Origin: Aquipseudomonas alcaligenes MRY13-0052
GTDB taxonomy: Bacteria; Pseudomonadota; Gammaproteobacteria; Pseudomonadales; Pseudomonadaceae
NCBI GenBank assembly: GCA_000474255.1
Contig: BATO01000006.1
Location: 1 to 64,000, forward strand
Direction of reading: 5' to 3'
Length of the DNA stretch: 64,000 nt
This document shows positions 13,551-57,948 of the stretch, in pieces. Within the stretch, counting starts at the first letter, position 1; the number at the start of each line of letters is the position of its first letter. Made by a program: the position numbers and the translations under genes. The notes under the pieces were generated by a model that was not told the DNA's origin, did not search any database, and was given only the letters and a program-made list of their open reading frames with translations.

Positions 13551-14554
13551 TGGCCGCGTAGCAGTTCGGTGGCCTGATCTAGCAGGCTCAACGGGTCCTG
13601 GGTCTTGTGCACGTCCACCGAGAGCAGCTGGCGGAAGCGCCGCGCCCCGGGGAAGCCCTGGCCCAGGCCCAGCACATGGCGGGTGATGTGATGCATCTGC
13701 CCGCCTTCCGCGATGTGCCGTTCTATATAGGGGCGCAGTGCCGCCAGGGCCTCGGCCCGGGTCGGTTGCGGCGCCTGGTCACCGAATAGCCGCGCATCCA
13801 CGCCTGCCAGCAGGTAGGGGTTGTGATAGGCCTCGCGGCCGAGCATCACGCCGTCGAACACCTCGAGGTGGGCCGCGCACTCATCCAGCGTCTTGATGCC
13901 GCCGTTGAGGATCAGCTCCAGGTCCGGGAAGTCCCGCTTCAGTTGCGCAGCGATGTCGTAGCGCAGCGGCGGGATTTCACGGTTCTCCTTCGGCGACAGG
14001 CCTTCGAGGATCGCGATGCGCGCATGCACGGTGAAGCTGCGGCAGCCGGCGTCGCGGACCTGGCCGACGAAATCACACAGCTCGGCATAGCTGTCGCGGC
14101 CGTTGATGCCGATGCGGTGCTTGACCGTCACCGGGATCGCCACCGCGTCCAGCATCGCCTTCACGCAATCGGCCACCAGCGCCGGATGCCCCATCAGGCA
14201 GGCGCCGATCATGTTGTTCTGCACCCGGTCACTGGGGCAGCCGACGTTGAGGTTCACCTCGTCGTAACCCGCTTCCTCCGCAAAGCGCGCGCTGGCCGCC
14301 AGATCGGCCGGCACGCTGCCGCCCAACTGCAGCGCCAGAGGGTGCTCGGCCTCGTCATGACGCAGGAAGCGCGCACGATCCCCCTGGAGCAGCGCCCCGG
14401 TGGTCACCATCTCCGTGTACAGCAGCGCATGGCGCGAAAGCAGGCGCAGGAAGAACCGACAATTTCTATCTGTCCAATCCATCATGGGAGCCACAGAAAA
14501 ACGCCTAGATAAATTCCCTTTAAAATCAGTAACTTGGGAGAGTGAATTTGACAC
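13547..14554 (-). CDS. dusA: tRNA-dihydrouridine(20/20a) synthase DusA, 5' end supplied by the element
   Basis: 335 aa flavoenzyme that reduces uridines in the tRNA D-loop. Visible features are SVAPMMDWTDR, catalytic Cys106 in NVGCPSDRVQ, VKHRIGI, and LILNGGIKT. Roughly the first 25-30 codons lie inside or beyond the attachment site, are AT-rich unlike the rest, and begin with GTG at 14554. The inserted element has thus rebuilt the gene with its own start and promoter. The displaced original 5' end survives at 57930-58020. Confidence 0.95.
   Translation of the reverse strand: MSNSLSQVTDFKGNLSRRFSVAPMMDWTDRNCRFFLRLLSRHALLYTEMVTTGALLQGDRARFLRHDEAEHPLALQLGGSVPADLAASARFAEEAGYDEVNLNVGCPSDRVQNNMIGACLMGHPALVADCVKAMLDAVAIPVTVKHRIGINGRDSYAELCDFVGQVRDAGCRSFTVHARIAILEGLSPKENREIPPLRYDIAAQLKRDFPDLELILNGGIKTLDECAAHLEVFDGVMLGREAYHNPYLLAGVDARLFGDQAPQPTRAEALAALRPYIERHIAEGGQMHHITRHVLGLGQGFPGARRFRQLLSVDVHKTQDPLSLLDQATELLRGH
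14467..14485. other. attL in dusA
   Basis: TATCTGTCCAATCCATCAT matches attR at 57930-57948 at 16 of 19 positions, with an unbroken 8-bp core TCCATCAT (14478-14485). It encodes MMDWTD of DusA in reverse. The exact crossover point within it cannot be fixed from this sequence alone. Confidence 0.7.
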
Positions 14555-14578
14555 AAAAACCCCGAAAAACTACTATTA

Positions 14579-14656
14579 GTGAACACAAAGTGTACACGCG
14601 GTGCGTGTGCAGTGTGGATTCAGTGTACGTCTCGGTGAACACGGAGTGAACACAGC
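14579..14656. repeat. candidate integrase arm-site repeats
   Basis: GTGAACAC occurs three times (14580, 14635 and 14646) with a related GTGTACAC between, just before the integrase start. A related GTGAACAAAAACTGCACAC lies near the right end at about 57879. Short direct repeats flanking an att core usually bind the integrase N-terminal domain; this is inferred. Confidence 0.5.
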
Positions 14657-15778
14657 ATGGCTTCAATTCGGCAGAACAAGAAGACAAAGAAATGGCGTGC
14701 ACTGGTTAGAAAGGCCGGATTCAAGCCGATGAGCAAAACGTTCAAGCTACAAGCTGACGCAAAAAAATGGGCTGCTGCACAAGAGCTAAAACTTGAATCA
14801 ATTCGAAATACTGGCAGAGCAGCCCCACCAGCTGGCTCAACATTCCCTGATTTCATTCGCAAATACACAGAAGAAGTCGGCTCAGTTAAGCCTTTTCTGA
14901 AAAATAAATCAGCATGTCTGCGTCGATTAAGCGAAGAGTTTAAAGGTGTACTGATGTCAGACATGACCGAGATGCGAATTGGTCAGTTTGTCGATAAGCG
15001 GTCTCGCGACAGAAATGCAGAAGGAAAAATTATCTCTGGTGTGACAATCAGTGGAGATCTTTCTTGTATCAGCACTATTTTGAAGTGGGCTAAGAAAGTT
15101 AAGCACTACAATATTGATGAAAACGCAGCAAAAGAAGTTCGCGCAGGCCTAAAAGAAAGGGGTTTTAATACGAGAAGCCAGGAGCGTGATCGCGAGGCGA
15201 CAAAAGAAGAGCTTGAGAAGATTTTTGCTGAGTACGAAAGGAAGGCCGGTCGGCAAATCATCCCGATGACAGACATCATTCTTTTTGCCATTCATTCAGC
15301 AATGCGGCAGGAAGAAATTTGCAGTATCAAAATTGAGGATGTTGACAGGCAGGCAAAGACGGTAATTATCAGGGATCGTAAGCACCCAGATCAGAAGAAG
15401 GGCAATGACCAGACCGTTCCACTTCTTTCTGATGCCTGGACTATTGCAGAGCATTACATCGGCGACAGAAAAAAGGGGAGAATTTTTAACTACAACCACC
15501 GGTCTGTTTCCGCATCATTTACACGAGTGTGCAAGAAATGCGAAATCGAAGACCTTCATTTTCATGATCTTCGACACACAGCAATCGGAATTCTGTTTGA
15601 GCTTGGACTGCAAATCCAGGAAGTCGCTGTAGTTTCAGGCCACAGCGATTGGAAAATGCTCAAGCGCTACACGCACATTAAAGCAGAAGATGTTCATGCC
15701 GCCTTTGAAAAGCGCAAGGCAAGGCGGCGAAATCGTGAAGCGCTCATGGACTATCTTGACGAAACAGCGTCAAATTGA
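14657..15778 (+). CDS. int: tyrosine recombinase / integrase (dusA-targeting)
   Basis: 373 aa. An N-terminal arm-binding segment (SIRQNKKTKKWRALVRK) and core-binding domain precede the catalytic domain with Arg217 (AMRQEEI), HDLRHTA (His303, Arg306), His329 (SGHSDW) and nucleophile Tyr338 (KRYTH). It sits about 170 bp from attL and reads away from dusA, the usual arrangement for dusA-integrating elements. It should drive both integration and excision. Confidence 0.95.
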   Translation: MASIRQNKKTKKWRALVRKAGFKPMSKTFKLQADAKKWAAAQELKLESIRNTGRAAPPAGSTFPDFIRKYTEEVGSVKPFLKNKSACLRRLSEEFKGVLMSDMTEMRIGQFVDKRSRDRNAEGKIISGVTISGDLSCISTILKWAKKVKHYNIDENAAKEVRAGLKERGFNTRSQERDREATKEELEKIFAEYERKAGRQIIPMTDIILFAIHSAMRQEEICSIKIEDVDRQAKTVIIRDRKHPDQKKGNDQTVPLLSDAWTIAEHYIGDRKKGRIFNYNHRSVSASFTRVCKKCEIEDLHFHDLRHTAIGILFELGLQIQEVAVVSGHSDWKMLKRYTHIKAEDVHAAFEKRKARRRNREALMDYLDETASN

Positions 15779-16039
15779 GTGATAAATAGCGTCCCTTCCA
15801 CGCTCTTTTTTGAGTGATTTCATGAAGTCAATGACGTCAGAGAACTCATAAAAGTAGGCAGTGCCAAGGCGAACTGAGGCAGGCCCCTTGCCTCTTTTTC
15901 GCCAATCTTCAACAGTCGACGGCTGCACTTTTGCTAAAGACACAAGGGTTTCTTCTGTCATAAAGCCCAACTTATCCGCAATGCGACGGCGTTCCTGTTC
16001 CACTTGATCAATCAATACCAGGTCAATAGCTGTACTCAT
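15770..16039 (-). CDS. small helix-turn-helix protein, possible excisionase/regulator
   Basis: 89 aa. An AlpA/excisionase-like HTH is suggested by LVSLAKVQPSTVEDWRKRG and the following wing with YFYEFSDVIDFMKS. Start at 16039 (MSTAIDLV) is preferred; an in-frame start lies 8 codons earlier. Its end overlaps int by 9 bp in convergent orientation. The only HTH near int, it may control excision or early transcription. A perfect 19-bp palindrome lies about 100 bp upstream. Confidence 0.7.
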   Translation of the reverse strand: MSTAIDLVLIDQVEQERRRIADKLGFMTEETLVSLAKVQPSTVEDWRKRGKGPASVRLGTAYFYEFSDVIDFMKSLKKERGRDAIYHSI

Positions 16040-16140
16040 CTCTATTATCTCGACTTCGTGCAACGTCTCTCACAGTGCGCTGCAACGGGGTCAATAATAT
16101 CGAATCATAAACTGCTGTCTACAACTTTTTCGCGTCCGAC

Positions 16141-16159
16141 TATTGACAACTTGTCAATA
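16141..16159. promoter_or_regulatory. perfect 19-bp palindrome, candidate operator
   Basis: TATTGACAACTTGTCAATA is a perfect dyad. Its half-site TTGTCAAT recurs upstream of the primase (about 17905), the helicase (about 18403) and the small gene at 21002 (about 20930). A shared repressor or promoter element is likely. Confidence 0.6.
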
Positions 16160-57048: not shown

Positions 57049-57099
57049 AATGCACCTATTTTTATTGTCATCAGCGCAACCCACGAAGTGGTGTGAGCA

Positions 57100-57158
57100 G
57101 ACCAGTTAACTAAGAGGAGTCCTCTTAGTTGTCTTACATAGACACAACTGGCTAAGAA
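57100..57158. other. oriT-like palindrome region
   Basis: Immediately upstream of mobC: a 23-bp perfect dyad, 11 bp each side of a central G (57108-57130, AACTAAGAGGA and complement), then GTTGTC-TTACATA-GACACAAC (57129-57149) as a second hairpin. Inverted repeats next to mobC are the normal place for oriT; the nic site is not identifiable by eye. Confidence 0.55.
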
Positions 57159-57257
57159 CGTCTTATATGCTTATTATTGCATTCCAGCTTTTGTCTTGTC
57201 AGTGGTTTTTATTGACTATAACCAAAGATAATTGTATGGCAACTGGGGTGTGTCGCT

Positions 57258-57425
57258 AATATAACCGAGTTTCTGATGCGACATAGGGGGAGTGTCGCAA
57301 TATAACTAACTTTGGCATGCGACATAGCGGGAGTGTCGCAATATAACCAACTTTCCAGTGCGACAAAGTGAGTGTGTCGCAGAATATAACCAACTTTCCG
57401 CTGCGACATAGCCTGAGTGTCGCAC
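57258..57425. repeat. iteron array, four 41-43-bp direct repeats
   Basis: Units at 57258-57298, 57299-57339, 57340-57382 and 57383-57425. Each has AATATAACCAACTTT and the internal dyad TGCGACA-N8/9-TGTCGC; degenerate units flank both sides (57229-57257 and 57426-57500). Candidates: replication origin, partition site, relaxosome binding or packaging signal. No protein gene lies in 57049-57929. Confidence 0.85.
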
Positions 57426-57569
57426 ATATAAGCAATCGACATGCCCGGTGTGTCTCATTGTAATATTGCGATACAAATGCAGTGTCGTAAAAGTGCCCGC
57501 GATACATAAGCCATGGCATTAAATTTGCGCTCAAAAACACCAACTTAAAACCATTGACGCGCACGCCTA

Positions 57570-57929
57570 GTTTGGTTGGGTTATTTTGAGTTTTTATTGG
57601 CGAAATCGCTGATCAATGCTGGGTTTTTTGGTTTCGATTGATCAAAAAATGAGCGAAAAAACACTGCCAGTAGCGGCACTATCTGAGTCAGTAGCGGCAG
57701 CTGTGTGGCCTTAAATGGCAGCTTGATGGCCCGGATTGGCATCTGAAATGTCGGTAGTGTCAGTCGGTAGTGTCAGGCACTGGAGCGACAGCTTGCTCAG
57801 TGCGTCCAATCCATTTTGGCTTTTTCAGTCCCGTCATCGGCCAGGTGGGGCATCGGTGTAGCAGCGGCGTATCGCTCAGTGAACAAAAACTGCACACGGA
57901 ATGCCGTTAAAGCCCCATGGTTACTGCCT
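57570..57929. other. right-end noncoding arm
   Basis: No gene. It contains tandem TCGGTAGTGTCAG (57754-57779), a GTCCAATCCAT identical to part of attL (57804), an extra att-like CAGTCCCGTCATCGG (57827), and a probable integrase arm site near 57879. Several dusA-like fragments suggest repeated integration or exchange events. Confidence 0.5.
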
Positions 57930-57948
57930 TATCAGTCCCGTCCATCAT
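57930..57948. other. attR
   Basis: TATCAGTCCCGTCCATCAT, 16 of 19 identical to attL at 14467. To its right the sequence becomes GC-rich and encodes the original start of DusA on the minus strand. Confidence 0.7.

What the first reader, a model, noticed from the sequence alone, without database searches (positions are those of the whole stretch)
14467..57948. Element with capsid, tail and lysis genes but no recognisable terminase or portal, and with a relaxase module
Seen: scaffold, P22-type coat, MuF, gp36-like and gpG-like neck proteins, tube, chaperone, tape measure and tail tip, holin/SAR endolysin/Rz/Rz1, all apparently intact. Not seen in any frame: a 400-650 aa protein with a terminase ATPase pattern, or a portal-like protein. 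All large frames are accounted for. MuF normally follows the portal; here it follows the lysis genes. A MOBP relaxase, MobC, oriT-like palindrome and iterons occupy the right end. Inference: packaging is supplied in trans (satellite), lost (decay), or replaced by relaxase-linked DNA processing.
Basis: partly seen in the sequence, partly recalled or inferred. Interest (0 to 1): 0.93.

Follow-up and report, generated by a model that had tools for sequence, protein, structure and literature searches.

The report
Prophage with packaging genes swapped out
A prophage in a likely Pseudomonas genome keeps its capsid, tail and lysis genes but has no DNA-packaging genes: where 20 of 20 related phages carry them it holds a stretch almost identical to part of a sister island that has anti-phage BREX genes instead of virion genes, so it likely lost packaging by recombination, would no longer make DNA-filled virions, and could still be moved by conjugation through its predicted relaxase.

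Summary
In detail: the 43-kb dusA element (about 14467-57966) has scaffold, coat, MuF, neck, tail and lysis genes and a relaxase module, but no terminase or portal. All 20 related IMG/VR phages carry TerL and portal; 19 show the whole block (endonuclease, RuvC, TerS, p157, TerL, portal) directly after the replication helicase. MuF behind the lysis genes is the family layout. MobA is in 14 of the 20 (the other six records end before or soon after the tail tip), so the relaxase did not replace the terminase. A sister island in another genus, also in dusA, has the same backbone, BREX genes and none of the family's virion genes. Window and island are about 80% identical up to base 20701, differ at 4 of 6563 positions from there to 31088, then fall to 70-81%: the mark of a recent recombination ending inside the helicase and MvaT genes, exactly across the packaging locus. 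A 3.8-kb lipid-enzyme cassette was inserted separately. The new part is the family: tailed phages with a conserved, selected relaxase and oriT-like site, and islands on the same backbone.

The parts
14467..14503 (.). attL, in the 5' end of dusA (dusA is 13547-14554, minus strand)
   Evidence: 37-bp overlap of the two flanks on the empty site G059:C1:5097938-5097974
14657..15778 (+). tyrosine integrase
   Evidence: Phage_integrase 1.3e-24; 74% to the integrase of the G366 island
16554..17828 (-). p424, backbone protein with primase/helicase-like hits
   Evidence: phrog_34715 2.5e-148; 63-68% in phages G058/G061, 89% in the G366 island
18488..20797 (+). CyRepA1-type replication helicase; left recombination breakpoint lies in its 3' end (last dense difference at 20701)
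   Evidence: NCBIfam CyRepA1 206.7 bits, cut-off 200; identity profile
20702..31088 (.). segment shared almost identically with the BREX island of G366; lies where relatives keep endonuclease-RuvC-TerS-p157-TerL-portal
   Evidence: 4 differences in 6563 aligned positions, cassette left out; flanks about 69-87% per 250 bp; packaging block at this locus in relatives
21365..21862 (-). p165, unknown
   Evidence: 99% in G366; in 0 of 20 TerL-bearing relatives
22158..22532 (+). p124 (weak DUF4116, below cut-off)
   Evidence: 99% in G366; 0 of 20 relatives; IMG/VR scan found only G057
22641..23117 (+). p158, small protein with signal-like N-terminus (by eye)
   Evidence: 100% in G366; 0 of 20 relatives; IMG/VR scan found only G057
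23552..27330 (.). inserted cargo cassette: SDR 23723-24415(-), fatty acid hydroxylase 24628-25854, p206 25803-26423, CRP regulator 26466-27212
   Evidence: Pfam; 99.7% to G004:C1:1113161-1116930; 23552-25901 99.5% to P. aeruginosa plasmid pPAMH19; absent from G366, where the gene it interrupts is intact
27509..30843 (-). array of 11 small genes, several mutually similar
   Evidence: 99-100% in G366; mutual similarity of about 29-47% over short stretches
31060..31425 (+). MvaT-like silencer; right recombination breakpoint at about 31088, in its first codons
   Evidence: MvaT_DBD 7.5e-20
33433..34233 (+). scaffold
   Evidence: phrog_206 3e-22
34373..35527 (+). major coat protein
   Evidence: phrog_283 8.1e-54; 48-81% in the 20 relatives
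36356..39260 (+). two fibre-like proteins (403 and 421 aa) with a tail fibre assembly gene (37571-37951) between them
   Evidence: tfa hit 2.4e-10; 422-aa homologues of the 421-aa protein at the same place in G058 and G061, 31-32% identity
39338..40468 (+). holin, endolysin, Rz
40468..41481 (+). MuF head morphogenesis protein
   Evidence: phrog_241 1.7e-80; behind the lysis genes in 18 of 18 relatives that cover it
41653..43750 (+). head-tail adaptor, neck, 145-aa connector, tail tube
45007..55052 (+). small tail protein, tape measure, tail tip complex
55592..56752 (-). MobA relaxase
   Evidence: Pfam Relaxase 6.2e-23; NCBIfam TraI_MobP 7e-18, below its cut-off; weak best fold match R1162 MobA, E 0.018, on a model of mean pLDDT 62
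56749..57084 (-). MobC (NikA-like)
   Evidence: PF21983 5.4e-10
57108..57154 (-). oriT-like site: palindrome 57108-57130 and conserved core TAGCCAGTTGTGTCT at 57140-57154, upstream of mobC
   Evidence: palindrome; core with at most 1 mismatch in 21 of 21 elements with enough sequence, 16 exact
57258..57429 (.). four iteron-like 47-nt repeats, spacing 41-43
57930..57966 (.). attR

Best explanation
This is a prophage of an apparently undescribed family of relaxase-bearing temperate phages whose packaging block (endonuclease, RuvC, TerS, TerL, portal) was most likely replaced by homologous recombination with a sister defence island, so that it likely cannot package DNA and would spread, if at all, by excision and conjugative mobilization. 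Shown by sequence: (a) all 20 relatives found by coat or relaxase have TerL and portal, and 19 show the whole block after the helicase; (b) the sister island of G366 sits in dusA with the same integrase type, p424, helicase, gene array, MvaT, MobC and MobA, carries BREX genes and none of the family's virion genes; (c) between 20702 and 31088 window and island differ at 4 of 6563 positions, while the flanks are about 69-87% identical; (d) MobA, MobC and the oriT-like core are shared by phages and islands. Inferred: direction of the exchange (island to prophage), order of events, that no fitting portal and terminase come from elsewhere, and that the relaxase works in transfer. Proposed working: the integrase excises the element at the dusA att sites, CyRepA1 replicates it, induction could still make lysis proteins and empty or tail-only particles, and MobC/MobA would nick near the core at 57140-57154 and pass one strand through the mating apparatus of another element.
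For: Packaging block in relatives: in G058 TerL phrog_2 1.9e-29, portal phrog_145 7.9e-96, TerS phrog_4102 2.9e-20; TerL sought in the records; gene order the same in 20 of 20 for the genes each record covers. Recombination: identity profile and list of differences. Sister island content and att-like repeats at dusA; BrxA, BrxB, BrxC, PglX, PglZ, BrxL by PADLOC. Trees: window and G366 are sisters at 100/100 for MobA, helicase and p424; next come G058 (and the partial G259) for MobA, 100/97, and G058/G061 for p424, 100/100, and helicase, 93/92; for MvaT window+G366 has 90/61. Relaxase kept by selection in TerL-bearing phages: dN/dS 0.06-0.09 in five phage pairs. oriT-like core in 21 of 21. Not an assembly artefact: G366, a one-contig 5.48-Mb genome, has the same segment.
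Against: Direction of exchange is not proved; the segment could have gone from prophage to island after an earlier loss. Only one terminase-less virion-bearing element is known (IMG/VR record G057 is identical over 42 kb, probably the same genome). No PF03135 (VirB4-type) protein was found in the host, so no resident helper for conjugation is known; other families were not searched. BREX, relaxase and oriT are predictions. Window virion and lysis proteins have somewhat more private changes than those of G058 (476 against 398 over 17 proteins, chi-square 6.96), which fits relaxed selection for some time or plain rate variation; four backbone proteins sum to 153 against 149, MobA alone 39 against 22.
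Confidence: 0.83

Rival explanations
1. Satellite-like life: the element makes its own capsids and tails, and terminase and portal are supplied in trans by a co-resident phage.
For: The other virion genes are open; the genome holds a TerL/portal region 81% identical to Pseudomonas phages Fc02/Ps56.
Against: A portal must fit the coat and neck of this family (established knowledge), and the genome has no TerL of this family. The segment in place of the block is nearly identical to that of an island without this virion set, so nothing points to a helper-dependent design. No TerS-like gene beyond helix-turn-helix noise.
Confidence: 0.06
2. An island first: the backbone without packaging genes is the older state in this lineage, and the window island later took up a virion and lysis block (32.4-55 kb) from a phage.
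For: The backbone genes of the window are closest to the virion-less G366 island (integrase 74% against 30% in phage G058, MobC 66% against 44%).
Against: Both backbone and virion genes are closest to G058/G061 among the phages, at similar distances, as expected for joint descent; identity to G366 outside 20.7-31.1 kb is only about 69-87%, so the packaging-less segment is the recent arrival; a 541-bp piece that lies between tail genes in the window is found next to MobA in G366.
Confidence: 0.1
3. Relaxase-linked DNA processing replaced the terminase.
For: The window element has one and not the other.
Against: 14 of 20 TerL-bearing relatives carry MobA too, the other six records ending early, and MobA there is under strong purifying selection.
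Confidence: 0.01

Closest known systems
P1-like phage-plasmids that turned into mobilizable plasmids (PMC10879196, passages read)
   Same: Loss of virion functions in a phage lineage that ends with mob or oriT and cargo, to be moved by conjugation helpers.
   Different: [quoted passage not shown] here relaxase and oriT-like site are already in terminase-bearing phages, and the element is integrated in dusA.
dusA-specific genomic islands and prophages (PMC4482086, passages read; PMC8409611, search listing only)
   Same: Integrase beside dusA, imperfect direct repeats, element supplies a new dusA 5' end, mosaic cargo; the Vibrio islands of PMC8409611 are mobilizable by IncC plasmids (its title).
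   Different: No virion-bearing member with MobA/MobC and a BREX-bearing sister was seen in those passages or listings.
Integrative mobilizable elements (definition in PMC11389934, passages read)
   Same: Integrase, relaxase, oriT-like site, no mating-pair formation genes found.
   Different: Carries a nearly complete tailed-phage virion and lysis set.
CyRepA1 replication proteins of plasmids, including some that I recall as phage-plasmids
   Same: Helicase 18488-20797 is above the CyRepA1 cut-off.
   Different: Here in an integrated element; a partition system was not sought.
Vibrio (VP06, SSP002) and Dinoroseobacter (R5C) phages
   Same: Coat about 28% identical (best: Vibrio phage VP06), MuF 31% (Dinoroseobacter phage R5C).
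   Different: Far relatives; the relaxase has only partial matches in 7 of 50,697 phage records.

Membership tests
Complete temperate tailed phage (prophage) | Integrase and att sites | tested here: met
Complete temperate tailed phage (prophage) | Capsid, neck, tail and lysis genes open | tested here: met
Complete temperate tailed phage (prophage) | Terminase and portal | tested here: not met
Integrative mobilizable element | Integrase, relaxase and oriT | tested here: met
   oriT by conservation only
Integrative mobilizable element | No own mating-pair formation genes | tested here: met
   no such hit among the proteins scanned
Integrative mobilizable element | Transfer by a helper element | not testable with these tools
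   needs a mating experiment
Phage satellite (PICI, P4, cf-PICI; definition partly recalled) | Uses a helper's virion parts through dedicated redirecting or TerS genes | tested here: inconclusive
   own virion set and no TerS hit; redirecting genes have no model that was searched, and no helper was tested
dusA-specific genomic island | Insertion in the 5' end of dusA with imperfect direct repeats | tested here: met
   description in PMC4482086
Phage-plasmid | Plasmid-type replication gene | tested here: met
   CyRepA1 206.7 bits, cut-off 200
Phage-plasmid | Extrachromosomal lysogeny | tested here: not met
   integrated in dusA within a 154-kb contig

The most novel reading that the evidence does not exclude
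A whole family of tailed temperate phages has two ways to spread, virions and conjugative mobilization through its own relaxase and oriT, and its backbone switches between virus and mobilizable anti-phage (BREX and other) defence island by swapping modules between helicase, MvaT and MobA; the window element is caught in the switch, with virion genes still whole and packaging just replaced by island DNA.
Probability: 0.45. Interest if true: 0.88.

Novelty: new variant of a known kind. Interest (0 to 1): 0.7.

Why it matters
Conversion of phages into mobilizable elements has been argued from end states (PMC10879196, passages). Here the step itself is visible: a prophage whose packaging locus carries a segment with 4 differences in 6563 positions to a defence island, with breakpoints inside two shared genes. 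And a relaxase kept under purifying selection in phages that also have a terminase makes a plain question testable: do some temperate phages also travel by conjugation?

Tried and rejected
Hidden terminase or portal: rejected. The largest unassigned proteins (403, 421, 424 aa) have homologues at the same places in phages that also have TerL and portal (G058 and G061 for all three). The AlphaFold model of the 421-aa protein was useless (mean pLDDT 33) and was not searched; no PDB sequence match. No other unassigned protein was folded.

Cassette insertion (SDR, hydroxylase, CRP) as the cause of the loss: considered first, rejected. In G366 the same segment without cassette has no packaging genes either, and the gene that the cassette interrupts is intact there.

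Assembly error: rejected (same segment in an independent one-contig genome; no TerL of this family in the genome held).

Searches that gave little: coat in 57 relatives and 18 genus genomes (own genome only); coat in genome contigs (none; one 25% Clostridiales locus, by two short patterns each, so sensitivity is low); p424 against phages (none); p424 in 398 Pseudomonadaceae genomes (own, G366 and a piece in G259); MobA alignment against PDB sequences (none); Rfam (none); tRNAs (none).

Rows left out of counts: three coat records of 24-36% identity (L019, L090, L091; 10-19 kb; no TerL match) and the Clostridiales locus are not among the 20. MobA-only records G125, G126, G131, G135 (12-20 kb; no TerL match) and G128 are not either; in the MobA tree I labelled the first four 'phage', though only three of them (G125, G126, G131) show tail genes. 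G259 (MobA near a contig end, p424 piece on another contig) and G394 (38%) were not judged; G181 and G407 were not fetched. In one search, 3 of 24 elements with MobA (G126, G131, G139) had too little upstream sequence and were left out. IMG/VR records were not dereplicated. G138 was read over 40,000 of 86,453 bases.

Not in print: searches on relaxases in prophages or phage-plasmids, on BREX with mobilizable elements and on dusA listed no paper whose title or shown abstract describes this family; only open-licence PMC papers are held, and the lists were read as lists.

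
Full report
What was checked. The element lies in a 154-kb contig of a 6.88-Mb draft genome. An empty site in a genome of the same species matches 12529-14503 and 57930-59493 of the window with a 37-bp overlap, so the element is about 14467-57966, in the 5' end of dusA.

Virion genes and absence of packaging. PHROGs finds scaffold, coat, MuF, connectors, tube, tape measure, tip and lysis genes and no terminase or full portal; weak exceptions are in the observation check. 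TerL, TerS, portal, RuvC, endonuclease and p157 of the relative G058 have no match in the window better than E 0.036, and the G058 TerL none in the genome held.

Relatives. The coat finds 20 records in IMG/VR besides three distant ones; one of them (G057) is identical to window 14657-56752. The other 19, plus G133 found through MobA, make 20 relatives. All 20 have TerL and portal. Nineteen have endonuclease, RuvC, TerS and p157 as well; the 20th (G129) starts inside TerL. In all 20 the genes covered stand in one order: helicase, endonuclease, RuvC, TerS, p157, TerL, portal, MvaT, scaffold, coat, lysis, MuF, connectors, tail. MuF follows the lysis genes in 18 of 18 that cover it. MobA is in 14 of 20 and MobC in 13; record G139 ends at MobA. 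The six without MobA end early: G060 and G065 do not reach the tail tip, G136, G061 and G138 have 3, 530 and 962 bases beyond it, and G064 has 3212 bases, where its nearest kin by the helicase tree (G062, G063, G127, G130) have MobA 4.7-5.2 kb away. In other members the gap is 0.6-2.7 kb, so for G064 absence is not fully excluded.

Relaxase under selection. In five pairs of TerL-bearing phages (G062/G063, G062/G129, G063/G127, G124/G134, G137/G139) MobA dN/dS is 0.06-0.09 at dS 0.6-1.1, within or below the range of helicase (0.06-0.12), p424 (0.05-0.15) and TerL (0.03-0.12) in the same pairs where measurable. Upstream of mobC the 15-nt core TAGCCAGTTGTGTCT is present with at most one mismatch in 21 of 21 elements with enough sequence, 16 of them exactly, 375-428 bases before MobA; five whole records (253 kb) hold six sites with up to two mismatches on both strands, which should include their own five.

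The sister island. MobA was sought in 398 Pseudomonadaceae genomes: 8 have a match, the own genome included. Of the five others fetched, G366 has the MobA most like the window's (78%; the rest 38-59%). G366 (another genus, one contig) has an element in dusA, about 1742.1-1787.5 kb of its chromosome, with att-like repeats at both ends: integrase 74%, p424 89%, helicase 85%, p165, p124, p158 and the 11-gene array 99-100%, MvaT 83%, MobA 78%, MobC 66%, and no match to the family's virion or packaging genes. Between MobA and MvaT it carries BrxA, BrxB, BrxC, PglX, PglZ and BrxL by PADLOC, a WYL regulator and other defence-type hits; of ten proteins scanned there all ten hit a PADLOC model, some weakly. 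Other frames there were not classified.

The exchange. Window and G366 are about 69-87% identical per 250 bp up to 20701. From 20702 to 31088, leaving out the cassette, they differ at 4 of 6563 positions (20817, 22212, 23108 and the cassette junction). From 31089 identity falls to 70-81% and the match ends at 31800. The breakpoints lie in the 3' end of the helicase gene and in the first codons of the MvaT gene, the two genes that bracket the packaging block in the phages. p165, p124 and p158 are in 0 of 20 TerL-bearing relatives, and scans with p124 and p158 found only G057 in IMG/VR. The simplest account is that a prophage with the usual block recombined with an island like that of G366 and came out without it. 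The direction is inferred.

The cassette. 23552-27330 is 99.7% identical to a stretch of another species of the genus and 23552-25901 is 99.5% identical to pPAMH19. It is absent from G366, where the gene at its insertion point is intact. It did not cause the loss.

Trees. Window and G366 are sisters at 100/100 for MobA (23 rows), helicase (18) and p424 (18); for MvaT (22) that join is 90/61. Next come G058 and the partial G259 for MobA (100/97) and G058/G061 for p424 (100/100), helicase (93/92) and MvaT (98/96). In the MobA tree elements without family virion genes on the stretch fetched (G366, G128, G074, G269) fall among phages: G128 and G074 in an unresolved group with G062-like phages, G269 on a long branch. 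This fits several phage-island switches, or exchange of the MobA module alone; the data do not separate these.

Islands besides G366. G128 (34-kb metagenome contig) has MvaT, MobA, MobC and defence-type genes (E2/ThiF/JAB fusion, Mrr, GmrSD-like below cut-off) and no match to the family's virion genes. G074 and G269 have MobA and MobC and no such match in 58 and 59 kb fetched; G269 also has MvaT. The integrase beside MobA in G074 was recognised by eye only.

Function. The virion genes are open, which fits a recent loss. Private amino-acid changes are 476 in the window against 398 in G058 over 17 virion and lysis proteins (chi-square 6.96), and 153 against 149 over four backbone proteins, of which MobA alone has 39 against 22. 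With no portal the head cannot be filled by the known route; lysis and tail genes could still act after induction. Relaxase, accessory protein, oriT-like site, integrase and CyRepA1 replication gene make mobilization the likely remaining way out. Whether a helper exists in this host is unknown: no PF03135 protein was found.

Literature. PMC10879196 (passages) describes P1-like phage-plasmids that lost phage genes and relatives with mob or oriT; PMC11389934 (passages) says that defective prophages could be proto-hitchers; PMC4482086 (passages) describes dusA-specific islands. None of the search listings shows a tailed phage family with a conserved relaxase; they cover open-licence papers only.

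Noticed in passing
window 27509-30843: Eleven consecutive small minus-strand genes, several similar to one another, 99-100% conserved in the G366 island; G058 also has a run of small genes on the strand opposite to its late genes next to MvaT. No Pfam hit over its cut-off in the 8 of 11 scanned. Function unknown.
   Followed up: partly
window 23552-27330: Cargo cassette (SDR, fatty acid hydroxylase with a sub-cut-off ornithine-lipid hydroxylase hit, p206, CRP regulator) 99.5-99.7% identical in another species and on plasmid pPAMH19; no target duplication seen; short tandem repeat near 23600-23655.
   Followed up: partly
window 18069, 21313, 50507 (+) and 41629 (-): A 25-base sequence recurs: 4 sites in the window, 6 in G058, 7 in G061, 2 in G366, 0 in G062 and G124 (up to 3 mismatches); possible lineage-specific regulatory site.
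   Followed up: partly
window 17845-17989 / 18336-18482 and 18040-18290 / 32059-32290: Long imperfect inverted repeats between p424 and helicase (83%) and a second inverted copy near 32.1 kb (76%); possible origin or operator region.
   Followed up: no
window 31060-31425: Phage-borne MvaT-like silencer; homologues in 19 of 20 relatives and in G128, G269 and G366.
   Followed up: partly
window 36356-39260: Two fibre-like proteins with a similar N-terminus, one on each side of a tail fibre assembly gene, between coat and lysis genes.
   Followed up: partly
L124 1930-17432: Metagenome element with MobA, MobC, MvaT and defence-type genes but no match to the family's virion genes.
   Followed up: partly
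window 55592-56752, residues about 335-353: The MobA model has a helix here in a hydrophobic stretch of the sequence; the relatives vary in this part.
   Followed up: no
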